From the NCBI GenBank assembly GCA_013204605.1, contig JABMNI010000044.1:1-61304 (forward strand): DNA of 61,304 nt, in the 5' to 3' direction. The notes beneath the pieces were generated by a model. That model had not been told where the DNA came from, ran no database searches, and worked only from the letters and a program-made list of their open reading frames with translations. The stretch comes from Ignavibacteria bacterium (GTDB lineage: Bacteria > Bacteroidota > Ignavibacteria > Kapaibacteriales > Kapaibacteriaceae). The translations under genes and the position numbers were made by a program. Numbering within the stretch: the first letter of the stretch is position 1; every line of letters starts with the position of its first letter. Below, in pieces: positions 10,463-51,161 of this stretch.

Positions 10463-13400
10463 ATGAAACCGTCAGATTACTTCATTACATCAAACAAGAT
10501 TCTAGTGGCATTACTGCTAGTATTCTCGTTGACACTCCTGAGCTCGCCAGAGAGTAGAGCACAGAGTTCTTGGGTTTCTGAAGCCCAACAAGATGGATTT
10601 ACTTTAAAGAAGGTTGTGAGTGACACGGTAATACCGAGTGGTCAAACCTTTACGTATTCCATATACTTCTCAATTCCTGCTGGAGCAACCGCCGTAACGG
10701 TTTCGGATGTGCTGCCTGCATCGATAGAATATTTGAGTGGAACGTATACGGCACCATGTGGTACACCCACGGTGTCGGCTCCGTTGGTGAGTAGCCTTGG
10801 AGGGACTTACTCTTTAACATTTGCATCGCTTCCGTCGGGATGCTCAGGCTCGTTTACACTTACGGTGCGTTTTCCAAATGGCACAACGTGTAACAACACA
10901 ACGGCTCGAAACCGAGCGTGTATTACTGGAGTGTTAGCCGGAAAGACAGTTGAATTTTGCACTGGATATGTTTCAACCAGAGCTACAGCAGTTGAACCGT
11001 GGAACATTAACAAGTATGTAATTGGTGCAGCATATCAAGGGGGCACGTGTCCGTATGCAACAGCCGATTCAGTACTAAACTATCAGGTGTGTGTGTATAA
11101 AAATGTGGGCACGACAGGTCAACTGAATCTTAGTGCGGGGATTGTTACAGACGTTCTTCCCGCCGGTGCCGTTCTTACGGGGTCCACTTGTGGCGCTACT
11201 CAGACCGGAAATACAATTACGTGGAATGTGGGTGGTTTGAGTGCGCTGCCTATGTATAACACAGTCTGTTGCACATTTACCGTACTGTATCCTAGAGCGA
11301 CATTCCCAACTGGATCCACAATCACGAACAAAGCTGTTTTGTCTGGAACACTTGGAAGCTCGCAGAATCCGTGTGGAACATTGAGTGACACTAGTAATCA
11401 ATCCTGTGTTGAGATTAAGGATATTGTTAGTGCGACGATAAGCAAATACGTATACACCAACCGTCAGCCGGGATGTGCTGGCAAATATCAAATTTGGATT
11501 TGCAATAATGGAACATCTACGCTTTCATCGTTCACCGTAACAGACACTATACCAACAACGCTTACAGGACTTTCCATAGGCACCACATCTGCTGGTTTAA
11601 CGGCCAACCTTGTTGGAAATATTGCGACGGCAACAAGCACATCGGCACTAGCGCCGGGTCAGTGTAGATACTTTGAAATTAATTTCACAATTCCGGCGGC
11701 AGCAGTTGTTGGATCAACCATCACTAATTGCGCATGGTTTACAAGTGCGGGTGTGGCGCCAATTAAAGCCTGTGTATCGTTTGTAGTATCGGCTCCGGCA
11801 CCACAAGTCTGCATTTGGAAAGATGTGTGCGGAAAATTGCCATCGTATGCTCCAGGATCCACATTCCGCTACCGGATGCGTGTTCAGAACATCGGTGGAC
11901 AGCCCCTCACGGGATCGACAATTACTGATGCATTGAATGGAAATATTGAGTACGTTGGTAATCCATCTTACTATACTTCGACAGCCTGGAATGCCCCTTG
12001 CCAGCCAACTTCGAATTGGACGGGCGTCACGCTTGCGTACAATTCTGGAACGCATACAGTCTCGGCGGCATTGCCAACAATTCCTGCGGTCTGCCAAAAT
12101 ATATTCTACTCGAATTGTGGAATGTATGGCACAAATGGAGTGTTGTTCTACTTTATTGAGTTTGATGTTAAAGTGTCGGATAGTTCGGCACTCGGTAACA
12201 TTCCTAACGCGTTCACAATAAGCGGTGGAACACTTCCTTCGGGAGTAACATCGAACGTGGAACTTGTAACAGTTGCCGGTACGGCCGGATACACGTTAGA
12301 TAAGAGTGTTAAGGAGAATCCAAGCGGATCATACGGAAGCTCGGCAACTGCATCGGCGGGTGGTTCGATTGCTTATAGATTGCGATTAACAGTTCCCACG
12401 GGTAGTGTGGGTTTACGACATGTTACGTTTGCAGATTTGCTGCCGCGCGACAATGGTGTGAACGATCAACTAATATTGGGTCCGTGCACTAGTCGTGGAA
12501 GCGCCTTTGATGTTACGTATGCCCTTCCGGCGCTTGCATCAACTCCAGCAACTACCACATGGAATAACCCTACCAGTTTTGCTCGGGTAAATACGTATCA
12601 ACCTACGGGTGCCCCTGCGGCAATGTTTACGGGTGGGTGTGGTACGTTAGGCACTTGGGTTGCTGGCCTGACCACGGGCGCAAAGAATGCAGGTTGGTAT
12701 TTCGGCTCTGCACCAATTTCAGCGTTAGGCACGGCCACTGCGCAAATGAATGGTTTAGTGTCTTCGACGGCAGCTGATTCTGCGGTAGCGTGTAACACGT
12801 TTGCAGCAAGTGCAGCCGTACGTCACCTTATTAACAGCACGATTATTTCCGATCAGGTTATTGGACAATTGGAGTCGGGACCTGTTTGTGTACGCGTTGT
12901 TAAAAAGGAGGTCAGCGGTTGTATAGATAGCATTCGCGTCAAGATAGATTGTGACGGCAAGGATGCTGCCGGTAATCAATTGTACAATGTCCAAATTACT
13001 GGCACTAACTCAGGTGGAGCCGGGATTCTGGTATTGAACTCAACGCAAGGAACTTTTGCGCCTGCATCATTTGTCATTCCTTCTGGACCATTTGTTGTGA
13101 ATACAGTGTTTACCGATACGCCACCGGTTAGCACGCTTATCACAATTGGTTACGGTTTGATGGGTAACAACGGTCAGATTATTTGTAGAGACAGCGTTAA
13201 GTATGACCTCCCACCTTGTCCGGGACTTCCGCCAGACGATTGCTGTAAGGAATTTATTAAGCGTATCGACAAAACAAAAATTACGTTTAACAATGCTGGT
13301 GGAGTTCAGTTGAGTGCGACAATAACGGCAGGTGCGGCACCAATTCAAAAATTCATAGCGTCGATTATTGGTGTACAACTGCGCACGAAATGTGGATCGG

Positions 13401-14836
13401 CTCCGGCTTCTGCATGGCAGCGTGCATTTGGTGACATCGTAAGTGGATCTCTGTCAAGCCCACTCTCACCGGGTCCTCAGTTACTTTCGGTATACAGCAG
13501 GGTTGCACAGTGGGGAACTGGCGAGTGTCAGAATTTCATGCAGGGCGTGAACATGAATTTGAACATGATGTTCCCACCACCACCTGCAAGTTTTAAATGT
13601 AACGACACGTTGATATTTACTATCCGCTACACCTTTACGGATTGTAAGTGTAACACGTGTGAAATGGTGAAGCGCGACACGGTTGTTCGACGTCGCACAT
13701 TCAAGCCTTGGGATGACGTTGGAATATTGTTCCCACACAGATTAGGCAGTCTAGCAGATGGCGGAAGTAAACGTGGCGAAAACGTTCAGGCTGATAGCGC
13801 GAAAACCACATCGGTTACTATGACCGATAAAAACAATGGGACACTGCACATTATCAATCCTGCTGCTAACGATAACAGGGTTGAAGTTCTTGGTGTAGAA
13901 GTGACATCGAATATGGTTCCGCTTTTGTCGATTACAAATGATGGAAATAAAATTCCTGTTATAGGTGCAACGGGATATTCGGGTGCCTCGGTTCCTCCAG
14001 GATCGAACGTACAGGTTGGGCTTGAATTCAATAATTCGACCAGTCTGATGAAGTTTCCTTTGGACGTGAGATTCCTATATAACGATGGCACGGGAAGCGG
14101 TCCGGAGTTTAGCGAAGTGGTCCACTTTGTTGCACGCGTGCCTGGTGGTACGCCTGACGAAGTGTCTGCCGACGCAACCACAAAGCCCGTTAACGTAAAA
14201 ACCTATGCGGTCTTTTTCAAGAATGCTAACAGTTACTCAGATCGTACATCGGTGCTTAGAATTCGTTCCAAGAGTTCAGCGCGAATTCTGGCTGTTGGAC
14301 CAGCTAATACTAATAGTGCCGAGGCACTGTTAGCGCCAGTTGCCAACGATGCTGGTGCGTATATGATTACTGCTCTCGAAAATGGTGAAGGGGGCGTTGG
14401 GGCTGGTGTTACTGTGAAACCGATCTATCTGACGCTTTCGAATGTTGACGGCAACACGGCCGAGTTCGATTTTGAAACCACGGATGATATTGGCAACACT
14501 ATTTCCAGCGGCACCTTCGTATTGTCGAGCCCAATTTCAGGTATTCGAGAATCTGGTGGCGACATTGGTAATCCCGTTGCGTTGATAAACGTGATGCCAA
14601 ACCCGGCTGGCACAGGAGCCACGGTTTCGTTAACGTTGAACACGTTTGTACATGCGGCCGACATGACGATTTCCGACCTCAACGGTAAAGTGATTCAAAC
14701 GTTGGTATCGGGTCCGTTGGATGGTGGCAGTCATATCATACCAATCAACGTCTCCAACATGAGCAACGGCGCATACTTCATAGTATTCAATACTCCGTTT
14801 GGAACTCAGTCATTACCGCTGAACGTGGTTAAGTAA
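10463..14836 (+). CDS. giant exported DUF11-type protein with T9SS sorting domain
   Basis: 1457 aa. A signal peptide (hydrophobic ILVALLLVFSLTLLSS, cut near ESRAQ) is followed by several ~120-residue beta-sandwich repeats of the DUF11/conserved repeat type (VTVSDVLPASIEYLSG; LSAGIVTDVLPAGAVLTGS; SSFTVTDTIPTTLTGLSIG). Many paired cysteines (CGTPT, CNNT, CCTFT) suggest disulfide or isopeptide-like stabilisation. The last ~85 residues (INVMPNPAG, MTISDLNGKVIQTL, NGAYFIVFNT) form a type A T9SS sorting domain, so the protein is predicted to reach the cell surface. It is nearly free of the AGGGGGCT motif (only a GGGGC(A/G) variant), unlike its neighbours. Role: adhesin or surface fibre, inferred. 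Confidence 0.85.
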   Translation: MKPSDYFITSNKILVALLLVFSLTLLSSPESRAQSSWVSEAQQDGFTLKKVVSDTVIPSGQTFTYSIYFSIPAGATAVTVSDVLPASIEYLSGTYTAPCGTPTVSAPLVSSLGGTYSLTFASLPSGCSGSFTLTVRFPNGTTCNNTTARNRACITGVLAGKTVEFCTGYVSTRATAVEPWNINKYVIGAAYQGGTCPYATADSVLNYQVCVYKNVGTTGQLNLSAGIVTDVLPAGAVLTGSTCGATQTGNTITWNVGGLSALPMYNTVCCTFTVLYPRATFPTGSTITNKAVLSGTLGSSQNPCGTLSDTSNQSCVEIKDIVSATISKYVYTNRQPGCAGKYQIWICNNGTSTLSSFTVTDTIPTTLTGLSIGTTSAGLTANLVGNIATATSTSALAPGQCRYFEINFTIPAAAVVGSTITNCAWFTSAGVAPIKACVSFVVSAPAPQVCIWKDVCGKLPSYAPGSTFRYRMRVQNIGGQPLTGSTITDALNGNIEYVGNPSYYTSTAWNAPCQPTSNWTGVTLAYNSGTHTVSAALPTIPAVCQNIFYSNCGMYGTNGVLFYFIEFDVKVSDSSALGNIPNAFTISGGTLPSGVTSNVELVTVAGTAGYTLDKSVKENPSGSYGSSATASAGGSIAYRLRLTVPTGSVGLRHVTFADLLPRDNGVNDQLILGPCTSRGSAFDVTYALPALASTPATTTWNNPTSFARVNTYQPTGAPAAMFTGGCGTLGTWVAGLTTGAKNAGWYFGSAPISALGTATAQMNGLVSSTAADSAVACNTFAASAAVRHLINSTIISDQVIGQLESGPVCVRVVKKEVSGCIDSIRVKIDCDGKDAAGNQLYNVQITGTNSGGAGILVLNSTQGTFAPASFVIPSGPFVVNTVFTDTPPVSTLITIGYGLMGNNGQIICRDSVKYDLPPCPGLPPDDCCKEFIKRIDKTKITFNNAGGVQLSATITAGAAPIQKFIASIIGVQLRTKCGSAPASAWQRAFGDIVSGSLSSPLSPGPQLLSVYSRVAQWGTGECQNFMQGVNMNLNMMFPPPPASFKCNDTLIFTIRYTFTDCKCNTCEMVKRDTVVRRRTFKPWDDVGILFPHRLGSLADGGSKRGENVQADSAKTTSVTMTDKNNGTLHIINPAANDNRVEVLGVEVTSNMVPLLSITNDGNKIPVIGATGYSGASVPPGSNVQVGLEFNNSTSLMKFPLDVRFLYNDGTGSGPEFSEVVHFVARVPGGTPDEVSADATTKPVNVKTYAVFFKNANSYSDRTSVLRIRSKSSARILAVGPANTNSAEALLAPVANDAGAYMITALENGEGGVGAGVTVKPIYLTLSNVDGNTAEFDFETTDDIGNTISSGTFVLSSPISGIRESGGDIGNPVALINVMPNPAGTGATVSLTLNTFVHAADMTISDLNGKVIQTLVSGPLDGGSHIIPINVSNMSNGAYFIVFNTPFGTQSLPLNVVK

Positions 14837-19201: not shown

Positions 19202-20202
19202 GAATGGCATCTCAAGAATTACAAAAGTTGTTAATGCCGATCGATGAAGATCTGATTTTCAAATCGGGAAATCCAGACGATCTGCGTCTGGGGGATTTGA
19301 TTACACCAATCGCCGACGTCGAACTTGGCAACGCAACAGCGGTGGTAATTCTAGGAATTCCGCAACACATTGGCGTGGAGCGAAACAACGGCAGGCCGGG
19401 CGCCGCGGGTGGTCCAACGGAAATTAGACGAGCTCTGTATAAAATGGCCACACATTCAATTAGTCCCACTATGCAGGCGGGCAAGTTGATGATAATCGAT
19501 GCGGGCAATTTGGATATCGCCGGAAAAACTCTCGAGCAAATTCACGACGAGCAACACGATGTTGTTGCAGGGTTGTTGAGGAAAAAAATATTTCCGATCA
19601 TCTTGGGCGGCGGACACGACATTGCGTGGCCCACCATGCGGGCGCTTGAAACTCTTGGCGAAAAATATGGCGTGATAAACATCGACGCTCACGCTGACAT
19701 CCGCCCGTTGCAAGACGGCAAACGCGCCCACAGCGGATCGGCATTTCGTCAGTTGCTTGATGTGGAACACTCGCACATTTCTGCAGGGGGCTTAGTGGAA
19801 TTCGGTCTGCAGGAATTCTCAGCAAGCAAGGAACACACCTCGGCTATTAAAGCCGCCGGCATGCACGTGATGATGTTAGATGAAATTCGGATGGAAGGAA
19901 TTGCGTTTGCATGGCAAGAAGCGTTGGGTCATGCAACTACTTCCGCCAACACCTACATCTCCCTCGACATGGACGCATTCGCCTCGGCCTTTGCTCCCGG
20001 CGTAAGCGCTCCCGCCGCCGATGGTTTTGCGCCATGGGAAATTGCGCAATGCATCCGCACAGCAGCACGCAACCCCGCCCTCAAAATATTCGACGTAGCA
20101 GAAATGAATCCAGAGTACGACGTAGATGGCCGAACGGCAAAACTTGCGGCGACCATGATAATGCATGTACTGTCGGGAATAGCTGAAAGGATTAAGGATT
20201 AA
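19198..20202 (+). CDS. hutG: formimidoylglutamase/arginase-family hydrolase
   Basis: 334 aa ureohydrolase fold. The manganese-binding positions are visible: GGGHD (His140), DAHAD (Asp163, His165, Asp167) and SLDMDAF (Asp257, Asp259). It best fits formimidoylglutamase, the last step of one histidine-degradation route, and a urocanate hydratase (HutU) lies 18 kb away in the same window; agmatinase or arginase cannot be excluded. ATG at 19198 overlaps the stop of the PNGase-like gene; an ATG at 19204 is an alternative. The last codons (RIKD stop) are written by a GGATTAA heptamer repeat that continues to the IS boundary. Confidence 0.8.
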   Translation: MRMASQELQKLLMPIDEDLIFKSGNPDDLRLGDLITPIADVELGNATAVVILGIPQHIGVERNNGRPGAAGGPTEIRRALYKMATHSISPTMQAGKLMIIDAGNLDIAGKTLEQIHDEQHDVVAGLLRKKIFPIILGGGHDIAWPTMRALETLGEKYGVINIDAHADIRPLQDGKRAHSGSAFRQLLDVEHSHISAGGLVEFGLQEFSASKEHTSAIKAAGMHVMMLDEIRMEGIAFAWQEALGHATTSANTYISLDMDAFASAFAPGVSAPAADGFAPWEIAQCIRTAARNPALKIFDVAEMNPEYDVDGRTAKLAATMIMHVLSGIAERIKD

Positions 20203-20209
20203 GGATTAA
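20186..20209 (+). repeat. heptanucleotide repeat GGATTAA
   Basis: Three GGATTAA copies starting inside the final codons of hutG and ending with TTAA, the target site of the IS5-family element. Similar heptamer tracts lie at 30554 and 32293. Confidence 0.85.
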
Positions 20210-21538
20210 GGGCATCTCTAAAAACTCATTGCAATAGTGCTCATAGTTGATGATATTTGAATCGCAGCAAACAAGCAGAGGAAAAGCAATGAAACAGGGT
20301 TCAATATACGAGCAAATGCGTCGCTCGGATAAGTTGATAAAATTTAGCGATCCACTGGGAGAGCTCAATACGCGGACCAATATCGAGGCATTTAGAAAGC
20401 GACTGGAAAGCGCCGTACGTAAAGAAGCGAAGGGTCCCGGAGGACGTCCTCCGTTTGATGTGGTGTTGATGTTCAAGGTACTGATCGTAGGTGTGATGCA
20501 TCAGCTATCGGATGATCAATTGGAGCTGCGGATCTACGATAGCCATTTCGTTCAGAAGTTTTTGCAGTTAGATTCAGACGATAGGATACCTGACGCCAAG
20601 ACGATATGGGCATTCAGACAGTCATTGACACAATCAGGAGTCATTGACCAATTGTTTGCAGACTTTGATAGCATGCTAACGAGGTCAGGAGTTACCTACT
20701 CCAAAGGTATTATCGTCGACGCGAAGATTATCGAGATACCGAAACAGCGAAACACGAGAGAAGAGAATGTGAAAGTAAAAAACGGTGAAGTGCCGGAAGA
20801 ATGGAAAACTCCGGAAAACGAAAACAAGTTGCGCCAAAAGGATGTCGATGCACGGTGGACTACCAAGGCCAAACGTAGTTACTACGGATACAAGAACCAC
20901 ATCAAAATTGACAAGAAGACCAAACTCATACGATCGTTTGCCGTGACACCTGCTTCAACACATGACAGCTTGGCGATTCGGTCCTTGCTTGACCCTACAG
21001 ACAAAGGCAGAAGCCCGCGTTCCATGTATGCCGACTCAGGATACTACGGTATTGCCGTTGAGGAAGCATGCAGCGACAATGATGTAACACCTCGAGTAGT
21101 ATTTCGCCATCGCCGCGGAAAGAAACCGTTGACCCAAGCACAGAAGAAACGTAACCTATCCATTTCAAAACCACGAGCCAGAGTTGAACATGTTTTTGGA
21201 GCAATGGTCAACGACCTGAAGTTTCAGAAACTTCGAAGCATCGGGTTGGCACGAGCGCATGCCCAACTCGGAATGATAAACTTACTTACTAACATGAAAC
21301 GAGCGCTCGTATTAAAAGACCGTACGTTGCTCATAGGTTGGACCTAAAAATTCAGCAAATCAACAAATAATCAAACCAAAAATCCTTTTGAAAAACCAAA
21401 ATTTGGTTGACGACTGAATTCTCACTGTGTGATGTACAACCACAAATCACACGATGCTTCCGTAAAACATTGAAAATCAATTTAAAATCGATTTTAAAAA
21501 ACAAACAGACTCAAAATTTCAGGTTTTGAGAGGTGCCC
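20210..21538 (+). mobile_element. IS5-family insertion sequence, apparently complete
   Basis: Bounded by imperfect terminal inverted repeats: GGGCATCTCTAAAAAC on the left and, as complement, GGGCACCTCTCAAAAC on the right. Both flanks carry TTAA (20206-20209 and 21539-21542), consistent with a target-site duplication in the IS5 family. It contains one full transposase gene; the 190 bp after that gene are AT-rich. It landed in a heptamer tract just after hutG, so it appears harmless to neighbouring reading frames. Confidence 0.88.
20289..21347 (+). CDS. IS5-family DDE transposase
   Basis: 352 aa from ATG 20289, which has GAGGAAA upstream. N-terminal DUF772-like domain (SIYEQMRRSDKLIKF, GRPPFDVVLMFKVLIVG) followed by a DDE core: Asp in GIIVDAKI, Asp in YADSGYYG and Glu in RARVEHVFGAM. 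Full length and uninterrupted, so the element may be active. Confidence 0.95.
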   Translation: MKQGSIYEQMRRSDKLIKFSDPLGELNTRTNIEAFRKRLESAVRKEAKGPGGRPPFDVVLMFKVLIVGVMHQLSDDQLELRIYDSHFVQKFLQLDSDDRIPDAKTIWAFRQSLTQSGVIDQLFADFDSMLTRSGVTYSKGIIVDAKIIEIPKQRNTREENVKVKNGEVPEEWKTPENENKLRQKDVDARWTTKAKRSYYGYKNHIKIDKKTKLIRSFAVTPASTHDSLAIRSLLDPTDKGRSPRSMYADSGYYGIAVEEACSDNDVTPRVVFRHRRGKKPLTQAQKKRNLSISKPRARVEHVFGAMVNDLKFQKLRSIGLARAHAQLGMINLLTNMKRALVLKDRTLLIGWT

Positions 21539-21863
21539 TTAAGAATTAGGAATTACGAATTTGGGGAACAATTCCATTTTTACTATCTGCGACGGGGATT
21601 CCTCCAAATAGAATCTCAGGACCAGCACGGCAGAATGAGCACAGGTGAGATTCAAGCTATAAGTGGCCCTTAAGAATCATACGTTATATGCGGTGTAGGT
21701 TCAGCCAATGTTATCAAGCTTTTATTATCGGAATGTGCACGTTATTCTTTTGAAAAAATGGGTCAGTTTGCATCTGAATTGATCAAAAATCATTTCAAAA
21801 AAATAGTTGTTGGATAATTGTTTGAAATGCGTAGTTTCACGTACATTTTTTGAAGGTGTTAGT
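21539..21863 (+). other. gene-free leader between IS and cassette 1
   Basis: 325 bp without an ORF that resembles a protein. It carries a second GGCCCTTAAGAAT word at about 21664 that resembles the IS right junction, possibly a relic end. The last 20 bp (TTTTTGAAGGTGTTAGT) give an AAGGTG-like ribosome site before the ATG at 21864. Confidence 0.5.
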
Positions 21864-22630
21864 ATGAGTAATAGAATTTCATTAGTTTCTGCGCCTCTGC
21901 GCCTCTGCGCCTCTGCGCCTCTGCGATAATTTTTCTTTTCTGTGCAATTGGGGCAATTGCACAAACAGATTGTGATTGGTCTGGGAGTTCTTGTACAGAT
22001 CCATGGGTGCCTAACCCAATTTTTAATATTTGGGTTCAGATTTCTTCGTCTCCGGCATGCAGCGTAATGGTCCAGATTCATTCCGCAACTAGGTGCAACG
22101 AGATAAATGTTATTACTTATGACGCTTTCATTTGGATTGCTGATCCACCGGGATGTGCAACCCAGTCGGACATTTCAAACTCCATAACCGCAGGTGTTAT
22201 TAAGGAAGCTATATATCTACACCTTGCTAATTTTAAAATGTTTGAATTGGCAATGGATCCATATTGTTGCCCTTGCCCAAACGATCAAGGAATGATCATT
22301 TCTAAAACGCTAAAATGCCAATCTATTGCCTTGCAATGGACTGGTAGTGGTGGCATTTTGAGATCAGTGACGTATGACCCGTCTCAACCTTGGTCATTCT
22401 ATCAAAATATGATTGACATGTCATACGGGTTTTTGGAAGTTCCACCGAGTGCCAACCCTTACTTTTCTTTGGTGGATTGTCTTTCACTTGGCTGCTGCTT
22501 TAAAACGAGATATTATTGCCGCAACACAAGCGACCAGATAACCTTTACAGACGGTGCATGGCAAAGTTTTGGTTCCGCTTGCAATACAGAAACCACACCG
22601 CCTTGTATTATAAATAATTGTAATTTTTAA
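21864..22630 (+). pseudogene. Cys-rich exported protein, cassette 1, out of frame (4 octamers)
   Basis: ATG 21864 opens MSNRISLVS and runs into four GCGCCTCT octamers (21891-21922); with four copies the frame meets TAA at 21927. With three copies the same ATG reads straight into a signal peptide (APLRLCAS, AIIFLFCAIGAIAQ) and the 220-residue mature protein starting QTDCDWSGSSC. The homologue at 26525 has exactly three octamers and is in frame. The mature part has 16 cysteines, all conserved in the homologue, including CCPC and SLGCCF. A GTG at 22007 could start a signal-less product. No known family recognised. This looks like a phase-variable gene in the OFF state. Confidence 0.8.
21891..21922 (+). 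repeat. octamer repeat GCGCCTCT x4 within coding start
   Basis: Four perfect copies, followed by a partial GCG. Because 8 is not a multiple of 3, gain or loss of one unit shifts the frame between the start codon and the rest of the gene. This is the typical architecture of a slipped-strand contingency locus. Confidence 0.95.
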
Positions 22631-22645
22631 TACCTAAAGTTATTC

Positions 22646-25027
22646 ATGAAACCACTATTAGTACTTCTGATTTTTCTTGCTGGCTCTACAGTAGGTATTT
22701 CGCAAGATTTACCACAACGCTTAACGGTTCTTACCCCTTGTGAGCATGGAGCATATCGTCTGTATTCATTGTGCGCTGTGGACAGTCAGAATATTGTGGC
22801 GGTGGGATCATTAGGCAGGGTTGGAATACTCAATATATTCACTGGTAGTTGGAACTGGGAGTGCTTGCCAGTGAACTTTACATTACGACATGTTCAAAAA
22901 ATCAACAATGAATTATGGACGGTTGGAGAAGGTGGTACTATTTGGAGGAAGAATATCGGTACTGGCGATTGGCGCTATGTTGCTCCACCGGATGGAAGCA
23001 ATTTGACTGGGATAGTTGGTGTTGATGATGGTATTGTAGTAACAACAGATAGCGGAAAGTTTTTCCATTGGACTAGTCTGACAGATACTTGGAGTTTGAC
23101 AGCACAGCAAGATGGTTTTCGATCCGGAACTCCATCTGGAAAAGGGAACACAGTAGTAGTTCCGAGTTTTGATGGAAGAGTAGCCAGATCTGTTGATGGT
23201 GGAATTACATGGACTTTTCAAAAGGTCTCTGAATTCAAGCTACGAGCTGCACTTGTGCTTACAGACAGTGTACTGTTCGTTGCTGGCTCCGGTGGAAGGG
23301 TTTTTCGTTCGTCAGATACCGGGGCGACATTTGAAGAATACGCGTTGTTGCCAATTTCTACTGCTGATTTAAATGACGAAAACGAAACAACTGACACATT
23401 CTGGAGCCTAACCAAGGGTACAGGTAATCAAGTGTTTGCCTGTGGTCGAATGTGGATTGAAATGCAAAGCAAACAAAATTATCAAGCGGTGTACCGTGGA
23501 AAAAATGAAGGCACTTCGTGGAGTAATTCAAAACTATCTGAATGGTTTGAGCTACTAGACCACGAGGTGTATGCCTCGCCTGCTATTGGAGCTGTAATGC
23601 TTGACAGTGCACATGGAGTGTGCGTAACAAGTTCTGATTTGCATAACTCGATAGGCGTTCACGTAACAGTAAACGGTGGAGATTTGTGGACGCCCAAAGC
23701 GGTGTGGTATGCCGGAGCGTTACTGGTTGAATCTGACATTACACCACAGTTATCGGGTAGAAATGTAATAAATAGCGATGTTGGTGTATCCAGCGATTCC
23801 GGACTATTTGTTCTTGAAAGTTACTCGGATTTTGGAATTCTTATGGGCAGTACTGGGTACTCCAAACTGATTAAGTTGTCAGGGTGGCAGAACAACGTAA
23901 TGAAACGCGATACAATAGCAATTCTGCCGGGATCATTTACGCGACTCAGTGTAGATGGTGCAAAAATGGCAGTGTTTGGTGGTGGTAGGTCTTACGCTAT
24001 TTCATCCGACAGTGGACGTAGTTGGACTACTTTTGACTCTGTAGATGGGTTTCAAGAAGCTGGGCAATTGACCACTGTTATGTTCGGAGACGGAAATTCA
24101 ATTTTCACTAAAGCACAAGTAATTTCAACACCTATGCACTCATGGGGATACACCATTCCACTTTTGTCTTCGGATTTTGGAAAGACATGGCGAATACCGG
24201 AATACAATTACAAGGTTGATTACGTTTACGGTGCCTTCAAGTCAAACAAATTATCAAACGGCAGTATTGCAATGAATGTCTTGATGTTGCCCTCGCCCAC
24301 AGAGGCGTATCAAGAGATGGTGACAATTGATCAACAAGGTTTAATGAAGTTTCTACCTCCATTGCCGCCGGATTTTCGTGAGAAGTCTCGAAAGCAGCCT
24401 GTATTAATTGTTCATGACGAGACAATTGTAGCAATAGCTTCTCAACAATGGAATGTGAACGGAAAGGAAGTGAACGCGCTTAAACGAATTACTTTTAAAC
24501 CTGAGAGTGGTACTTGGCAAATAGATTCTACATTCTGGTTTTTGTATAACAAAATTCAGGCACCTAAGATTGCCTCATGGAAATATTCCAATCGTAGTGG
24601 AAATTCCATTTCAATGATAAACAATTTCTCTGAAGTTTATGCATCAAGTGATGGGGGTATTAATTGGCACTTTATCCCTAAAATATTGACATCGTATGAT
24701 GCCAATATCGACGCCGCACTGGTGATCGGCAATCGATGCATTGTTTCGGGCGGAAGCCGATTGCTGTATTCTTTTGGGATAAATGATGTTACATCTCATG
24801 CAGTTGAACCATCAGATATCCGTAAGCATCAATTTCCAATTGAGTTGTGTTCTGAGCTGGGTGGGAGCTTCCGAATATTTAGTGTTTTGGGCCAGTTGCT
24901 TAGAGAGGGTAGCTTTCTTGAATACTCGGAGTTAGAAGGGCAAATTCAATCTATGGGAAGTAACCAGTTGCTGGTGATTGAGGTACTTCAAAAGTGCGGA
25001 CGCACCGTTCTGAAAACATACCATTGA
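22646..25027 (+). CDS. exported beta-propeller (Ycf48/BNR-like) protein, cassette 1
   Basis: 793 aa. Signal peptide (PLLVLLIFLAGSTVGISQ), then repeated propeller blades with DxGxTW-type motifs (RSVDGGITWTF, RSSDTGATFEEY, SSDSGRSWTTFDS, SSDFGKTWRIPEYN, SSDGGINWHFIP), as in Ycf48 and sialidase-like propellers. The last ~60 residues (GGSFRIFSVLGQLLREGSF, LLVIEVLQKCGRTVL) look like a short T9SS-type C-terminal domain. Starts 15 nt after the Cys-rich gene and is probably co-transcribed with it. About two thirds identical by eye to the protein at 27246. The pair probably works together at the cell surface; the ligand is unknown. Confidence 0.85.
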   Translation: MKPLLVLLIFLAGSTVGISQDLPQRLTVLTPCEHGAYRLYSLCAVDSQNIVAVGSLGRVGILNIFTGSWNWECLPVNFTLRHVQKINNELWTVGEGGTIWRKNIGTGDWRYVAPPDGSNLTGIVGVDDGIVVTTDSGKFFHWTSLTDTWSLTAQQDGFRSGTPSGKGNTVVVPSFDGRVARSVDGGITWTFQKVSEFKLRAALVLTDSVLFVAGSGGRVFRSSDTGATFEEYALLPISTADLNDENETTDTFWSLTKGTGNQVFACGRMWIEMQSKQNYQAVYRGKNEGTSWSNSKLSEWFELLDHEVYASPAIGAVMLDSAHGVCVTSSDLHNSIGVHVTVNGGDLWTPKAVWYAGALLVESDITPQLSGRNVINSDVGVSSDSGLFVLESYSDFGILMGSTGYSKLIKLSGWQNNVMKRDTIAILPGSFTRLSVDGAKMAVFGGGRSYAISSDSGRSWTTFDSVDGFQEAGQLTTVMFGDGNSIFTKAQVISTPMHSWGYTIPLLSSDFGKTWRIPEYNYKVDYVYGAFKSNKLSNGSIAMNVLMLPSPTEAYQEMVTIDQQGLMKFLPPLPPDFREKSRKQPVLIVHDETIVAIASQQWNVNGKEVNALKRITFKPESGTWQIDSTFWFLYNKIQAPKIASWKYSNRSGNSISMINNFSEVYASSDGGINWHFIPKILTSYDANIDAALVIGNRCIVSGGSRLLYSFGINDVTSHAVEPSDIRKHQFPIELCSELGGSFRIFSVLGQLLREGSFLEYSELEGQIQSMGSNQLLVIEVLQKCGRTVLKTYH

Positions 25028-25056
25028 GTTTACTTGCTATACGTTACAGCTCCTGC

Positions 25057-26241
25057 CTACATTTTGTTCGCCTGAACAACCACATACGGTACAGATTTGA
25101 TGCTCTTGACTAGTGATAGTCCAACTGCCAACAGATCATTCTGGACGCCCGCTAAATCGTTTCGGCGGATTTCAAAATCGTATAACTCTCGGTAGTTAAT
25201 GCTGAGATCGTAAATCACGATGAGTCCATACTCACGTTTAATGTACGATAGCATAGAACCAATGGTGACATTCTCCAACTGAATTTTCCCTTCGGTGCCA
25301 GTAAGCAGATTTGTGTTGGCACTTCGAGTGCGATGTAGCGTGAGTAAACTGGAATCGGAAATTGATATTGATAAAACTTCCACAAGTCTGTGTTCAATTT
25401 TTGTCTTCGTACCCAATGCAACATCCAGTAACGACAACACTCCATCCCGTATCCGAGATCGGTCCGTGGTAGAATCCAACCGTAGTGTAAAATTGAAAAA
25501 CCCGGGTGGTTCCTCGCCGATCACTTCTCGCTCGGCGTTTTTATATCCCAAAGTATTTACCACATTGATAATTATTCCACTGGGTATCTGCGACCTGCCC
25601 TCCATAAAGGTATCCATCGGGTGATTACTTGAAATCACATTCTTGTCCGATGCAAGAGCGTTGCTCACCTTCAACTCGAAAAGGGTGCGTTCCTCCAAGG
25701 TTGGATCTGCAGGTATCGAGTCAGTTAATAAATACGTACCTACCAAATCGGTAGTAAGCGAATCTGCTTTTCCCTCCCAAACCACCTTTCCATCTCGTCC
25801 CACCATTATGGCGTACGGTATGCCCCAAGCCCCAAAGTATTTCAAGAACATATCGCTTTTAACATCAATGCACACTTTCTGCGGCATGGCCTTAACCGAA
25901 ATGAATGAGTCGATAACTTCCTTTTTCGCATTCCACGATACCGCCACCACCTCTACTCCCTTATCTGCAAACTGCGCCTCAATGGCGTTCACTTTTGGCA
26001 TCAAATCAATACAAGGCTTACACCATGTTGCAAAGAACTCAAAAATCACAACCTTGTTCTTGAACGTCTCGTTCGACACCGCCGCCGGACGTACCCACAG
26101 CAACTCTTCGCAGTTGGGCGCGGCTTTCCCAATGGCATTCTTTTGCGCAATCACTTGAAGGGGGCTAACCAGCACCCACGCAAAAACTACTAATACCAAA
26201 ACAGATTTGATAATTCCTAGCGAAGGTCTGATTTGTCTCAT
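25057..26241 (-). CDS. TlpA-like exported thioredoxin with extra C-terminal domain
   Basis: 394 aa from ATG 26241 (a longer open frame has no better start). Signal or anchor segment SVLVLVVFAWVLVSPLQVIA, then a TlpA/ResA-type thioredoxin fold with the active site FFATWCKPC (Cys74, Cys77) and cis-Pro region WGIPYAIMV. The ~200-residue C-terminal part (IPSGIIINVVNTLGYKNAER, VTIGSMLSYIKREYGLIVIY) resembles the TIGR03435/DUF3738-type domains found after TlpA domains in some phyla. It lies on the opposite strand between two cassettes whose first proteins each have 16 cysteines, so a role in their disulfide formation is a reasonable inference. Confidence 0.8.
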   Translation of the reverse strand: MRQIRPSLGIIKSVLVLVVFAWVLVSPLQVIAQKNAIGKAAPNCEELLWVRPAAVSNETFKNKVVIFEFFATWCKPCIDLMPKVNAIEAQFADKGVEVVAVSWNAKKEVIDSFISVKAMPQKVCIDVKSDMFLKYFGAWGIPYAIMVGRDGKVVWEGKADSLTTDLVGTYLLTDSIPADPTLEERTLFELKVSNALASDKNVISSNHPMDTFMEGRSQIPSGIIINVVNTLGYKNAEREVIGEEPPGFFNFTLRLDSTTDRSRIRDGVLSLLDVALGTKTKIEHRLVEVLSISISDSSLLTLHRTRSANTNLLTGTEGKIQLENVTIGSMLSYIKREYGLIVIYDLSINYRELYDFEIRRNDLAGVQNDLLAVGLSLVKSIKSVPYVVVQANKM

Positions 26242-26524
26242 AAGGGCTGCCGAATGGAATTGAATGAATTTTCTAAAATAGGAATTTGCACAATTGGCAA
26301 GAGAGTGATTATACCACAATAAGCCCAGATCTCGATTTATTCGAGGATCAGCAGGGTACTGATGTAGGATGATTACTATTCTCCGATCGTGGTCTACCTC
26401 ACTTGAAATATTTAAAAAAAATTCAGTTGTGTATCTGTGGCGAAGTAGTATATTTACCTGATTATTTTCTACAACTTAAATTCTTGAGGGTGTTGATATA
26501 GGTAAGCGTCTTTCATTAGTTTCT

Positions 26525-26548
26525 GTGCCTCTGTGCCTCTGTGCCTCT
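26525..26548 (+). repeat. octamer repeat GTGCCTCT x3 within coding start
   Basis: Three copies, a G to T variant of the cassette-1 octamer at the same codon position. Three copies keep the frame open from the ancestral start position through the signal peptide. Confidence 0.95.
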
Positions 26549-27253
26549 GTAATATTTCTATTTTTTGGCTCATCTAGCCTGCAGTCGCAGACCGATTGTG
26601 ATTGGACAGGGAGTAACTGTACGGATCCATGGGTTACTCCGCCGCCACAGACCTTTTGGGTTGAAATTTCCACATCACCAGCTTGCAGTGCCAAAGTGGA
26701 CGTTTATTTTAAGACAAGGTGTGGTGAAATTGACGTATTGGACTTTTATGTTTATACTGATGTAAACCCTGCAAATTGTGCAAGTCCAGCAACTGTGGGA
26801 AGCTCCATTGTTAACGGAATAGTGAGAGAGGCAATCTATATCAGATTAGCTAACCTTAGAATGTTTCAGTTAGCATCCAATCCTACTTGCTGCCCGTGTC
26901 CTGTTGGAGCAATGTCAATTGTTTCTAAAACAGTACGCTGCCACGCGATTATATTGAGCTGGACTAATGGAAGTAATATTCAAATCTCAGCAGAGTATGA
27001 TCCCACAGTTTCTTGGTCATACTACCAGGGTTTGATAGATGCGTCATTCGGTCCTGACCAAAGCCCAAGTTTTGCATATCCTAATTTCCGAATGTTGGAT
27101 TGTTTGTCACTTGGGTGCTGTTTTAGAACAAGGAGTTATTGTAGAAATTCAGAATCACAAATTATCTATCAGGACGGTCCATGGCAGATTATTGGCCCTG
27201 AGTGTAATCAGGAGACATTTCCACATTGCACTGTTACAAATTGTCATGATTAA
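26525..27253 (+). CDS. Cys-rich exported protein, cassette 2, in frame (3 octamers)
   Basis: 242 aa from GTG 26525. Homologous to 21864-22630 over its full length, with the same 16 cysteines (DCDW, SNC, TCCPC, SLGCCF, YCRNSES). The signal peptide is written by three GTGCCTCT octamers (PLCLCASV) plus IFLFFGSSS. At the position of the ATG in cassette 1 this copy has ATA (26498-26500), preceded by the same GAGGGTG-like site and followed by an open frame (GKRLSLVS) into the octamers. Translation therefore needs ATA or the GTG inside the repeat. Unknown family; ends overlapping the next start by 8 nt. Confidence 0.75.
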   Translation: MPLCLCASVIFLFFGSSSLQSQTDCDWTGSNCTDPWVTPPPQTFWVEISTSPACSAKVDVYFKTRCGEIDVLDFYVYTDVNPANCASPATVGSSIVNGIVREAIYIRLANLRMFQLASNPTCCPCPVGAMSIVSKTVRCHAIILSWTNGSNIQISAEYDPTVSWSYYQGLIDASFGPDQSPSFAYPNFRMLDCLSLGCCFRTRSYCRNSESQIIYQDGPWQIIGPECNQETFPHCTVTNCHD

Positions 27254-29648
27254 AAAATATCGAATTCAATGGCCTATATTCTATTTTCTTGTTCTATGTG
27301 CATCCTTTGGTAGTGTTTACGCACAAATTCTTCCAAATGGATTACAGGTGTTAACGCCATGCAGCTTCGGCGCTTACAAATTGAATTCAATGTGTGTTGT
27401 TGACGCGCATAATATAGTTGCCGTTGGTACACTGGGAAGAATCGGAGTGTTCAATATTTTTTCTGGCGTTTGGAACTGGGAATGTCTGCCTGTAAATTTC
27501 ACGCTTCGTCATGTTGTCAAGATCAATGACATGCTTTGGACGGTCGGTGATGTGGGAAACATTTGGCGACGACGCCTTCCTAGCGGCGGTTGGGAGAATG
27601 TAGTAGCACCTGACAATGGAAATTTCACCGGCATTTCAGGGGTTGAAGATGGTATAATTGCAACAACTGAGGATGGAAAGATTTATCACCAGTCAATGCA
27701 AACAAGTGCATGGAAACTGCTAGAACATATTAGTGGTTTTCGGTGTGGTGAACCTTCATCGAATGGGGCAATTACGATAGTACCAGCTTACGACGGTAGA
27801 GTGGCAAGGTCAAGTGATAATGGCAAGACGTGGGTGGTTGCAAAGGTGACAGGGTATAAACTTCGAACGGCATTAGTGTTCTCCGATAGTATAGTCTTTG
27901 TAGGGGGCTCTGCGGGACGCGTATTTCGTTCCTCAGATTCAGGCGCATCATTTGAGGAGTATGCTCTTTTACCAATCTCAAAAGAAAGTGGAAATGAAGA
28001 CAACGAAACAGAAGACACATTTTGGAGCTTAAAGAGAGGCTGGCAGGATCAGATACTAGCTTGTGGACGGATGTGGATTAAAAGACAATTCAATGAAAAT
28101 TACCAAGCCGTATACACTGGGAATTCAGTTGGAACTGTTTGGAGTAAACACTCACTGTCTGAACGGATCGACAGTTTAGATTTTTCAGTATTTGCCTCGC
28201 CAGCAATCGGTGCCGTCATGCTAGATAGTAATAATGGTGTTTGCATAACTAGTTCAAATCTGCACAATTCCATAGGTATTCATATTACCACAGACGCCGG
28301 CAAGACTTGGGCCCAGAAACAGGCTTGGTTTGCTGGTTTGGCCTTTGGTAAGTTGGATAGCACAAACAGGAAATCTGGGTTTAATGTTAGCATCACCGAT
28401 GCCACTGTTTCAACGGATTCCGCAATGTTCGCTATTGAAAATCGAGCTTCATTTGCACTACCTGCGGGCTACATGGGAAATTCTCTCCTTGTCAGGTATT
28501 CTCAATTGAAACCAAATGACACCAAGAGAGACACTATAGGAATTCTGCCAGGTATCTTTACAAGGTTGTCAATGAAGGGAAACCGTATCGCAGTATTCGG
28601 CGCTAATCAGGAGTATGCTATCTCTTCTGATCTAGGTCGTACTTGGACGAAATTCGATTCAATAACTTCCTTCTCTGAAACTGGTGCGATTTCTAGGATG
28701 TTATTCCGAGATAATGGCGAATTGTTTGCATTGGCTGCTGTTGTTGCCAAACCTGCACATTCTTGGGGATTTAACATTCCCTTGTTTTCATCAGACGGAG
28801 GAAAATCCTGGCGAGTACCTGAATACAACTATCAGCAAGGTTATACATACGGAGCTTTTAACTTTAATGAGTTGCTAAACGGGAACATTGTAATGAACAC
28901 CTTAGTGCAACCCACACCAGCGGAAGCTTTCCAAAAGCTGGTACAAATCGATTCAAAAGGAGTAATGGACTTTTTGCCATCGATGCCACCTCAGTTTGAG
29001 GATTTATCTAGAATGCAACCCGTAATGATAAGCGATGGCGATAAAATAATTGCTATCGCCTCACAACAATGGAATGTCAACGGTATCGAAGTAAACGCAA
29101 TGAAGCGCATTACCTATCATCCACAAACCGCAACTTGGAACGTTGACTCAACTTATTGGAGATTGAACAACACTGTTCTCCCGCCAAGGACCGAGAATTG
29201 GAAGTATTCCAATCGAATTGGTAAAACCATCCACGTGATATCGCAAAATTCCGAAATGTACACGTCGGTTGATGATGGGATCAACTGGCAATTCATTCCT
29301 AAAATTGTTGTTTCGTACGATGCAGAAATCGATGCTGTAGTAACCATCGGATCTCGTTACTTAGCATCTGGTGGATGTCGACTTTTGTACTCATTCGTAG
29401 TGAACGATATTACATCGGCGGTAGACGAACCAAGTGAGCCGGGTGTACATAGATCGTTAAATGATTTGTGTTCACATCTCGGAGGGAGTTACAGAATATA
29501 CGGTGTGTTGGGTCAGATTCTTGGAGAAGGAAACTTCCTTGAAGTTTCCGAATTAGAAGGACAACTTCGAGCAATTAGAAGTAACCAGTTGTTTATGGTC
29601 GAAGTTCTACAAGAGTGCGGACGCACCATAATGAAAACATTCAATTGA
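27246..29648 (+). CDS. exported beta-propeller (Ycf48/BNR-like) protein, cassette 2
   Basis: 800 aa from ATG 27246, which overlaps the previous stop (ATGATTAA). Signal peptide IFYFLVLCASFGSVYAQ. Aligns throughout with the cassette-1 propeller: WNWECLPVNFTLRHV, DGRVARSSDNGKTW, FRSSDSGASFEEYALLPIS, DLGRTWTKFDS, DGGKSWRVPEYNYQQG. The C-terminus (YRIYGVLGQILGEGNF, VEVLQECGRTIMKTFN) is the same sorting-like domain. A longer upstream open frame from 27039 overlaps the Cys-rich gene and has no signal peptide, so I rejected it. Divergence from copy 1 shows an old duplication. The dispersed motif is at 27902. Confidence 0.87.
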   Translation: MIKKYRIQWPIFYFLVLCASFGSVYAQILPNGLQVLTPCSFGAYKLNSMCVVDAHNIVAVGTLGRIGVFNIFSGVWNWECLPVNFTLRHVVKINDMLWTVGDVGNIWRRRLPSGGWENVVAPDNGNFTGISGVEDGIIATTEDGKIYHQSMQTSAWKLLEHISGFRCGEPSSNGAITIVPAYDGRVARSSDNGKTWVVAKVTGYKLRTALVFSDSIVFVGGSAGRVFRSSDSGASFEEYALLPISKESGNEDNETEDTFWSLKRGWQDQILACGRMWIKRQFNENYQAVYTGNSVGTVWSKHSLSERIDSLDFSVFASPAIGAVMLDSNNGVCITSSNLHNSIGIHITTDAGKTWAQKQAWFAGLAFGKLDSTNRKSGFNVSITDATVSTDSAMFAIENRASFALPAGYMGNSLLVRYSQLKPNDTKRDTIGILPGIFTRLSMKGNRIAVFGANQEYAISSDLGRTWTKFDSITSFSETGAISRMLFRDNGELFALAAVVAKPAHSWGFNIPLFSSDGGKSWRVPEYNYQQGYTYGAFNFNELLNGNIVMNTLVQPTPAEAFQKLVQIDSKGVMDFLPSMPPQFEDLSRMQPVMISDGDKIIAIASQQWNVNGIEVNAMKRITYHPQTATWNVDSTYWRLNNTVLPPRTENWKYSNRIGKTIHVISQNSEMYTSVDDGINWQFIPKIVVSYDAEIDAVVTIGSRYLASGGCRLLYSFVVNDITSAVDEPSEPGVHRSLNDLCSHLGGSYRIYGVLGQILGEGNFLEVSELEGQLRAIRSNQLFMVEVLQECGRTIMKTFN

Positions 29649-30553: not shown

Positions 30554-30605
30554 AATCATCTAAAATCCTTAATCCTTAATCATTAATCATTAATCATTAA
30601 TTACT
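30554..30605 (+). repeat. heptanucleotide repeat upstream of ettA
   Basis: Units CTTAATC and ATTAATC repeated about six times, ending 5-10 nt before the ettA start. Copy-number change would move the promoter relative to the gene. No Shine-Dalgarno site is seen. Confidence 0.85.
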
Positions 30606-30609
30606 CCTA

Positions 30610-32295
30610 ATGGCATTACCAGAACCACAAAAAATTATCTTTTCAATGGTTGGCGTTGGCAAGATTTACAAGCCAAACCGACAGGTACTGCGCGACATGT
30701 ACCTCAGTTTTTTTTACGGCGCAAAAATCGGCGTGCTGGGTCTGAATGGGTCTGGAAAGTCAACCTTACTCAAAATCATCGCGGGTCTCGACGACGAATA
30801 CGTAGGCCAGATCACCAAGAACAAAGATGTCACCTTCGGCTACCTTTCGCAGGAACCGGAATTAGATCCCGAAAAAACCGTCAGACAAATTGTTGAGGAG
30901 GGGGCTGTGGAGGCCGTTGGACTCTTACGCGATTACAATGCGATTAGTGAAAATTTTGCCGAGCCAGATGCTGACTTTGACAAACTTCTTGAACAGCAGG
31001 CAAAGTTGCAAGAAAAGATTGATGCGATGGGAGCGTGGGATATCGACTCGAAATTGGAAATGGCAATGGATGCACTGAGGTGTCCACCGCCCGAAACGTT
31101 GGTTTCGGTGATATCTGGTGGTGAGCGCCGACGCGTTGCGTTGGTGCGTTTGCTATTGCAAAAACCCGATGTGTTGTTGTTGGACGAGCCTACCAACCAC
31201 CTTGATGCCGAGAGCGTTGCGTGGTTGGAAAAACACTTGCACGATTACGAAGGTACCGTGATTGCGGTAACGCACGATAGGTACTTTCTGGACAACGTTG
31301 CTGGCTGGATTCTTGAACTCGATAATGGATACGGAATTCCGTTCGAAGGCAACTACACCTCGTGGTTGGAGCAAAAACAAGCACGTTTAGCCGTCGAAGA
31401 AAAGCAGGAATCAAAACGTCAACGGGCGTTGAAGGAAGAGTTGGATTGGGTGCGCATGAATCCGAAAGGACGCCATGCTAAGAGTAAGGCAAGGATTTCG
31501 GCCTACGAAAAACTCCTGAGTGAAGAGTCGGTAAAACGCAACGAAGAAATGGAAATCTTCATTCCCGTGGCAGCTCGTTTGGGCGATAGAGTGATAGATA
31601 CGGTGGGCATTGCAAAATCGTTTGATGACAAATTGTTGTACGAGAATCTCACAATCTCCATCCCCCCCGGTGCCATAGTTGGCATTGTGGGACCCAATGG
31701 AGCTGGAAAGACTACGCTTTTCAAAATGATAACCAAACAACTTGAACCAGATTCAGGTAGCATTACTGTGGGTGACACCGTAAAACTTGGTTACGTTGAT
31801 CAAAACCGTCCGCTCGATTCCACTAAATCAATTTGGGAAGAAATTTCCGAAGGCGCCGATACCATTCAACTCGGAAACCGAGAAGTAAACTCGCGCGCCT
31901 ACGTTTCGCGGTTCAACTTCAACGGAGCCGACCAACAGAAAAAAGTCACACAACTTTCGGGTGGCGAGCGCAACAGAGTTCACTTAGCAAAGGTTTTAAA
32001 GGAGGGGGCTAATGTGCTCCTGCTGGATGAGCCTACAAATGATTTAGATGTGAATACCCTGCGTGCGTTAGAGGAAGCGCTGCAAGGATTTGCAGGAAGC
32101 GTTTTGGTAATAAGTCACGATAGATGGTTTTTGGATAGAGTAGCAACTCATATACTTGCATTCGAAGGTGAGAGCGAAGTTTTGTGGTTTGATGGAAACT
32201 ATTCGCAATACGAAGAGGACCGTCATCGTCGATTGGGCACTGATGCGGATAGACCGCATAGGATTTCGTACAGAAAACTTACTAGAGACAATTAA
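30610..32295 (+). CDS. ettA: ABC-F translation factor EttA
   Basis: 561 aa, normal for EttA. Two ABC domains: Walker A GLNGSGKSTLL (residue ~44) and GPNGAGKTTLF (~360); signatures SGGERRRVAL and SGGERNRVHL; Walker B LLLDEPTNHLD and LLLDEPTNDLD. The arm and linker with KGRHAKSKARISAYEKL is typical of EttA. It is cytoplasmic, binds the ribosomal E site and gates entry into elongation according to ATP/ADP. Two AGGGGGCT motifs lie in it (30899 and 32003), both read as EGA, unlike the GGS reading elsewhere. Confidence 0.95.
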   Translation: MALPEPQKIIFSMVGVGKIYKPNRQVLRDMYLSFFYGAKIGVLGLNGSGKSTLLKIIAGLDDEYVGQITKNKDVTFGYLSQEPELDPEKTVRQIVEEGAVEAVGLLRDYNAISENFAEPDADFDKLLEQQAKLQEKIDAMGAWDIDSKLEMAMDALRCPPPETLVSVISGGERRRVALVRLLLQKPDVLLLDEPTNHLDAESVAWLEKHLHDYEGTVIAVTHDRYFLDNVAGWILELDNGYGIPFEGNYTSWLEQKQARLAVEEKQESKRQRALKEELDWVRMNPKGRHAKSKARISAYEKLLSEESVKRNEEMEIFIPVAARLGDRVIDTVGIAKSFDDKLLYENLTISIPPGAIVGIVGPNGAGKTTLFKMITKQLEPDSGSITVGDTVKLGYVDQNRPLDSTKSIWEEISEGADTIQLGNREVNSRAYVSRFNFNGADQQKKVTQLSGGERNRVHLAKVLKEGANVLLLDEPTNDLDVNTLRALEEALQGFAGSVLVISHDRWFLDRVATHILAFEGESEVLWFDGNYSQYEEDRHRRLGTDADRPHRISYRKLTRDN

Positions 32296-32328
32296 CAATT
32301 AACAATTAGCAATTAGTAATTAGCATCA
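32293..32328 (+). repeat. heptanucleotide repeat AACAATT/AGCAATT
   Basis: About five 7-bp units directly after the ettA stop codon, third heptamer tract in the window. No protein effect. Confidence 0.85.
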
Positions 32329-50970: not shown

Positions 50971-51161
50971 AGAAGATAGAAAGTTACCGAATTTTAATCT
51001 CGTACTTTTTATCAAATAGGTAGGGGGCTTTTCTTAAGTGGTATAGTTCTACATGTTGCGTCTGAATCATTTGGGAAACTAACCGCGGATCGTACGCACA
51101 TCAGGATGGTTCCAAATTATCCGGCAATTAATGTTAGGTTGCAAACTCAAAATGAATTTCA

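What the first reader, a model, noticed from the sequence alone, without database searches (positions are those of the whole stretch)
21864..26548. Octamer-repeat phase switch in the signal peptide of a duplicated Cys-rich gene
Both homologues carry 8-bp repeats at the same codon position. Copy 1 has four GCGCCTCT units and stops after 21 codons; with three units it would read MSNRISLVS, APLRLCAS, AIIFLFCAIG into the mature protein. Copy 2 has three GTGCCTCT units and is in frame. Repeat number therefore decides export. This is contingency-locus logic in an exported, 16-cysteine protein of unknown family.
Basis: partly seen in the sequence, partly recalled or inferred. Interest (0 to 1): 0.78.

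Follow-up and report, generated by a model that had tools for sequence, protein, structure and literature searches.

The report
Repeat-length gene switches in signal peptides

Summary
The octamer arrays are real: 4x GCGCCTCT (21891-21922) and 3x GTGCCTCT (26525-26548), at the same codon of two 50%-identical, 16-cysteine secreted proteins. Copy 1 is out of frame; 3 or 6 units would restore it. One correction: copy 2 is in frame, but the codon matching copy 1's ATG is ATA, with no ATG, GTG or TTG upstream, so it is not a clean ON allele.
The comparative evidence goes well beyond the finding. A third paralogue (contig C36) has a CT tract at the same place and is also out of frame. CT tracts of 6 or more occur in three places in this 2.69-Mb genome, all just after start codons of secreted ORFs. 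In a complete genome from another genus, the only three long CT tracts sit directly after the ATG of the three homologues: (CT)11 in frame, (CT)13 and (CT)18 out of frame. The 11 and 13 copies are 93% identical, with matching leaders apart from the tract. A decamer, G tracts and TG tracts mark further secreted genes.
Best explanation: slipped-strand phase variation, as in Helicobacter oipA and Neisseria opa, in an unrelated lineage and in protein families without a Pfam name. Repeat-number change within one population was not observed.

The parts
21852..21858 (+). Shine-Dalgarno-like GAAGGTG before ATG 21864
   Evidence: sequence; leader listed
21864..21929 (+). copy 1 start ATG and the 21-codon out-of-frame reading (MSNRISLVSAPLRLCASAPLR, stop TAA)
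21891..21922 (+). copy 1 octamer array, 4 x GCGCCTCT, in the signal-peptide region
21923..22630 (+). copy 1 rest of the signal peptide and mature 16-cysteine protein, open, in a different frame from ATG 21864
22646..25027 (+). downstream partner gene of copy 1 (793 aa, BNR/PQQ-type repeats)
26486..26492 (+). Shine-Dalgarno-like GAGGGTG before the ATA of copy 2
   Evidence: sequence; leader listed
26498..26500 (+). ATA at the position of copy 1's ATG: weak or lost start codon of copy 2
26525..26548 (+). copy 2 octamer array, 3 x GTGCCTCT, in frame
26498..27253 (+). copy 2 reading frame, 16-cysteine secreted protein (TDCDW...)
27246..29648 (+). downstream partner gene of copy 2 (800 aa, BNR/sortilin-type repeats); its ATG overlaps the stop of copy 2 (ATGATTAA)

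Best explanation
Each array is a slipped-strand ON/OFF switch for a secreted cysteine-rich protein. Replication slippage adds or removes a unit (8 nt in the window genes, 2 nt in the homologues). Because the unit is not a multiple of three, this moves the start codon in or out of frame with the rest of the signal peptide and the mature protein. When out of frame, translation stops after about 10-40 codons; when in frame, an N-terminal signal peptide, partly encoded by the repeat, is made and the protein is exported. Copy 1 is OFF in the assembly. Copy 2 is in frame but is probably weak or off, because its start codon has become ATA. The downstream BNR-repeat gene may follow the switch through translational coupling or polarity (inferred). 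Shown: arrays, frames, conserved position, and frame differences between near-identical homologues. Inferred: the switching itself, export, any effect on the partner gene, and the biological role (a mixed population of surface phenotypes).
For: Exact arrays and frame dependence. A third own paralogue has a CT tract at the same position and is out of frame. CT tracts of 6 or more units occur in three places in the 2.69-Mb genome, all on the coding strand just after the start codon of secreted ORFs. In the complete genome G004 (another genus of the family) the only CT tracts of 7.5 or more units are the three directly after ATG of the three homologues: (CT)11 in frame, (CT)13 and (CT)18 out of frame. 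The 11 and 13 homologues are 93.3% identical over 3352 bp, with the same leader except the tract. Other repeats at gene starts: a decamer in the leader of a 1737-aa T9SS-sorted protein, G10 in another leader, TG tracts before Cys-rich genes. Mature parts are constrained: copies 1 and 2 have pN 0.33 with pS saturated at 0.80 and all 16 Cys kept.
Against: No reads or second strain of this species were available, so length variation within a population is not shown. Copy 2 has no standard start codon. Homologues in G017, G021 and G118 have ordinary signal peptides without repeats. The wider family includes truncated fragments, so some members are decaying. The octamer motif is also a common element in environmental sequence and is not by itself a switch.
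Confidence: 0.8

Rival explanations
1. Copy 1 (and the other out-of-frame genes) are ordinary pseudogenes: fixed frameshifts at repeats, with copy 2 losing its start codon, in a decaying duplicated family.
For: Truncated family fragments exist (L115, L058) and one member is broken at a C8 tract; copy 2 has ATA for ATG.
Against: Mature frames are fully open, with synonymous sites saturated, pN much lower and all 16 Cys kept. In the ten genes of the frame table the only frame disruption seen lies at the slippable tract. In G004 one of two near-identical copies is in frame.
Confidence: 0.12
2. The octamer is a dispersed environmental repeat element that landed in the gene by chance; unit number is passive and has no selected role.
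Against: In this genome and 22 relatives it occurs only in these two genes. The position is shared with paralogues and homologues that use CT tracts instead, which an octamer insertion does not explain.
Confidence: 0.06
3. The proteins are always made, through ribosomal frameshifting at the repeat or from another start (GTG 22007, or ATT/CTG within the leader).
For: The mature frame is open upstream through the array; GTG 22007 opens a 207-aa ORF.
Against: Out-of-frame genes need different shifts (offset 1 in three, 2 in four), so no single programmed shift fits. GTG 22007 lies after the signal peptide and the first two cysteines, so its product would not be exported.
Confidence: 0.04

Closest known systems
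Helicobacter pylori oipA (CT dinucleotide repeats in the signal-peptide region)
   Same: CT tract at the 5' end within the signal-peptide coding region; unit number sets ON/OFF by slipped-strand mispairing (PMC10564699). The C36 and G004 genes have this arrangement.
   Different: Unrelated proteins in another lineage; some paralogues use an octamer; products are Cys-rich secreted proteins next to BNR-repeat genes, not Hop outer-membrane porins (family identity from own knowledge).
Neisseria opa genes (CTCTT repeats in the leader peptide)
   Same: A multi-gene family with independent coding repeats in the leader-peptide region of each copy (PMC3960869).
   Different: The pentamer is used in all opa copies as described there; here the repeat unit differs between paralogues; no sequence relationship was tested.
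Haemophilus influenzae biogroup aegyptius hmwA (octanucleotide repeat)
   Same: Variable octanucleotide array linked to a surface protein gene (12-15 copies of GCATCATC; PMC3309571).
   Different: That array lies in the putative promoter; the window array is coding and changes the reading frame.

Membership tests
Translational SSR phase-variable (contingency) locus | perfect tandem repeat, unit not a multiple of 3, inside the 5' coding region | tested here: met
Translational SSR phase-variable (contingency) locus | unit number decides whether the start codon is in frame with an intact downstream ORF | tested here: met
   in silico unit series; for copy 2 only with the non-standard ATA as start
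Translational SSR phase-variable (contingency) locus | repeat number differs between closely related alleles or copies and changes their frame | tested here: met
   G004 paralogues (CT)11 versus (CT)13, 93.3% identical. No allele of the window genes themselves was available
Translational SSR phase-variable (contingency) locus | reversible length change within a clonal population | not testable with these tools
   no reads or isolates
Translational SSR phase-variable (contingency) locus | expression follows repeat number | not testable with these tools
   needs reporter or proteomics
Known protein family for the Cys-rich product | match to a Pfam-A or NCBIfam model | tested here: not met
   no family for P0001/P0002 in Pfam or NCBIfam
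T9SS cargo (Por_Secre_tail) | C-terminal sorting domain | tested here: inconclusive
   met for the decamer gene on C38 and, just under the curated cut-off, window 10463-14836; no such hit for the Cys-rich proteins or their BNR partners

The most novel reading that the evidence does not exclude
An apparently undescribed bacterial lineage runs a genome-wide repertoire of repeat-driven switches (octamer, decamer, CT, TG and G tracts, in signal peptides and before genes) dedicated to a diverse superfamily of secreted Cys-rich and T9SS proteins, giving many combinations of surface states, comparable in scale to the contingency repertoires of host-adapted pathogens.
Probability: 0.5. Interest if true: 0.75.

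Novelty: new member of a known kind. Interest (0 to 1): 0.62.

Why it matters
Repeat-driven phase variation is best known from host-adapted pathogens. Finding it as a coherent set across a secreted-protein repertoire in an unnamed T9SS-bearing lineage suggests that such bacteria also keep mixed populations of surface states, perhaps against phages, predators or a host. It names specific loci with predicted ON and OFF unit numbers, so it can be tested directly on metagenome reads. It also offers a way to recognise such genes: a conserved secreted ORF without an in-frame start, preceded by a short tandem repeat.

Tried and rejected
Two genome-contig scans (protein P0001; alignment A1) found no relative, so the lineage could not be named. 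AlphaFold on the two window proteins gave a poor model (mean pLDDT 55), so no fold search was run. One (CT) site in G013 lies beside an NNN scaffold gap and was discarded. Homopolymer runs at contig ends (C18, C56, C79) were treated as probable artefacts. Heptamer repeats were set aside as a separate intergenic class. Promoter and terminator scans near copy 1 were at chance level. GTG 22007 as the real start was rejected: no signal peptide and two cysteines lost. A single programmed frameshift was rejected because offsets 1 and 2 both occur. Paper searches combining phase variation with Kapabacteria, with type IX secretion, and with environmental metagenomes gave nothing on this; Kapabacteria was only my guess at the lineage.

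Full report
OBSERVATION. The two arrays are exactly as described: 4 x GCGCCTCT at 21891-21922 and 3 x GTGCCTCT at 26525-26548. Both start 27 nt after the start position and follow the same TTAGTTTCT flank. ATG 21864 reads 21 codons and stops. Calculated for 1 to 7 units, only 3 and 6 bring ATG in frame with the mature protein. First-order Markov shuffles of the window gave no period-8 array of 24 bp or longer in 100 trials. The octamer occurs at these two places only in this 2.69-Mb genome and is absent from the 22 other genomes of the family searched. The mature proteins are 50% identical with 16 of 16 cysteines shared and match no Pfam or NCBIfam family.

CORRECTION. In copy 2 the codon aligned with copy 1's ATG is ATA (26498), preceded by a Shine-Dalgarno-like GAGGGTG. 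The open frame begins at 26480 and has no ATG, GTG or TTG before GTG 26525, which is the first codon of the array. Copy 2 is in frame but is not a normal ON gene. It may start weakly at ATA, or at GTG 26525 without a nearby ribosome-binding site, or be silent.

PARALOGUES. A third paralogue lies on contig C36 (39% identical to copy 2). Its leader is GTG AAA AAG ATT TT(CT)n; it is out of frame, and one unit more or two fewer would restore VKKIFSLSLSLVFLLSALTNQVAAQEG. A different Cys-rich gene 3 kb away has the same leader with T10(CT)7 and is also out of frame. A 456-codon open frame on the same contig starts ATG ATT AAA T(CT)8 and is out of frame. A genome-wide search for TCTCTCTCTCTC finds these three sites and no others, all on the coding strand. 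Rough estimate: with about 2,400 genes, a 30-nt zone after each start covers about 1.3% of the two strands, so three of three by chance is near 2e-6 (inference).

RELATIVES. Homologues occur in 5 of 391 genomes of the class by profile search, and one more, in G017, was found by protein search. In G004, a complete single-contig genome from another genus, there are three homologues, each beginning ATG AAC T followed by a CT tract of 11, 13 or 18 units. Only the 11-unit copy is in frame. The 11 and 13 copies are 93.3% identical over 3352 bp including the downstream gene, and their leaders match apart from the tract and scattered substitutions. A search for (TC)7.5 in all 23 genomes of the family finds 3 sites here, 3 in G004 (exactly these genes) and one in G013 beside a scaffold gap. 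Homologues in G017, G021 and G118 have ordinary signal peptides, so the switch is a feature of some lineages only.

A WIDER SET. In the sampled half of the genome, other repeats mark secreted genes. A decamer TCGCCGAGAG lies between ATG (M-DKIATKFVAESRRESPRV) and the hydrophobic core of a 1737-aa protein with a T9SS sorting domain; the assembly breaks inside this array, so its unit number is unknown, and the join of the two contigs is itself an inference from the shared repeat. G10 lies in the leader of a Cys-rich gene on C47, out of frame from the upstream ATG, although an internal ATG follows the tract. TG tracts lie before Cys-rich genes on C64 and C66 and before a secreted gene at the C20/C35 junction, and a TG tract lies in a probable signal peptide on C36, in frame. 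Not every run fits: some A/T runs, G9 runs inside ORFs and G11 on C75 before a gene without a signal peptide do not.

PSEUDOGENE TEST. Copies 1 and 2 differ at 80% of synonymous but 33% of nonsynonymous sites, with intact frames and all cysteines kept. That is long purifying selection, hard to reconcile with an old inactivation, though not with a recent one. Out-of-frame offsets are 1 in three genes and 2 in four, which excludes one common programmed frameshift.

THE OCTAMER ITSELF. Of 107 places counted, 29 lie in the first 150 nt of an open frame, and a few read as part of a signal peptide, because one frame encodes a hydrophobic LCASAPLRLCAS-type peptide. So the window genes may have captured a common element. 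The two arrays are homogeneous inside but differ from each other (GCG versus GTG), as expected if arrays turn over by slippage (inference).

NEIGHBOURS. Each of the three own copies is followed by an approximately 800-aa BNR/sortilin-type gene. In copy 2 its ATG overlaps the stop codon (ATGATTAA), so translation may be coupled and the switch could affect both products (inference).

CONCLUSION. Slipped-strand phase variation of translation is the best explanation (0.8). The arrangement is that of oipA (PMC10564699) and opa (PMC3960869); by sequence and lineage it is a separate occurrence. Not shown: length change within a population, expression, function of the proteins, and the name of the organism (T9SS domains point to the Bacteroidota group; this is inference).

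Noticed in passing
G000:C38:10194-10273 and C71 end (L063, L097): Decamer TCGCCGAGAG array in the leader of a 1737-aa protein with a T9SS sorting domain; two contigs end inside the array, one unit on C71 is a variant (TCGACGAGAG).
   Followed up: partly
G000:C36:21411-21434, 24690-24706, 51071-51088: Three CT tracts directly after start codons of secreted ORFs; the first two genes share a near-identical leader and upstream region.
   Followed up: yes
G004:C1 472876-473619 and 850362-851096: The two homologues are nearly identical in most of the mature part but differ strongly in the stretch just after the signal peptide, which looks like gene conversion around a variable N-terminal segment.
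   Followed up: partly
L064 and L108 (G000:C40, C74): Homologous Cys-rich genes whose ATG (ATGTTATTTT) is out of frame with the mature protein; L108 is also broken at a C8 tract.
   Followed up: no
L115 (C81) and L058 (C32): Truncated 3' fragments of the Cys-rich family without a start: decay or silent cassettes.
   Followed up: no
G000:C64:43602, C66:12485, C20/C35 ends: TG tracts of 8 to about 13 units shortly before starts of secreted genes; at C20/C35 two contigs meet at the tract with a one-base difference in the flank.
   Followed up: partly
window 20187-20211, 30576-30601, 32288-32308 and 36 places in the 1.31-Mb sample: Heptamer repeats (AATTCGT-like), mostly between genes: a separate, general repeat class of this genome.
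   Followed up: no
window 20247-21347: DDE transposase gene (DUF772 + DDE_Tnp_1) directly upstream of copy 1.
   Followed up: no
window 25057-26319, - strand: Thioredoxin/redoxin-domain gene between the two Cys-rich genes; might serve their disulphides, untested.
   Followed up: no
Viral contigs L216-L295: The octamer CTCTGYGY is a widespread element in environmental contigs, sometimes as inverted pairs, sometimes forming part of a signal peptide.
   Followed up: partly
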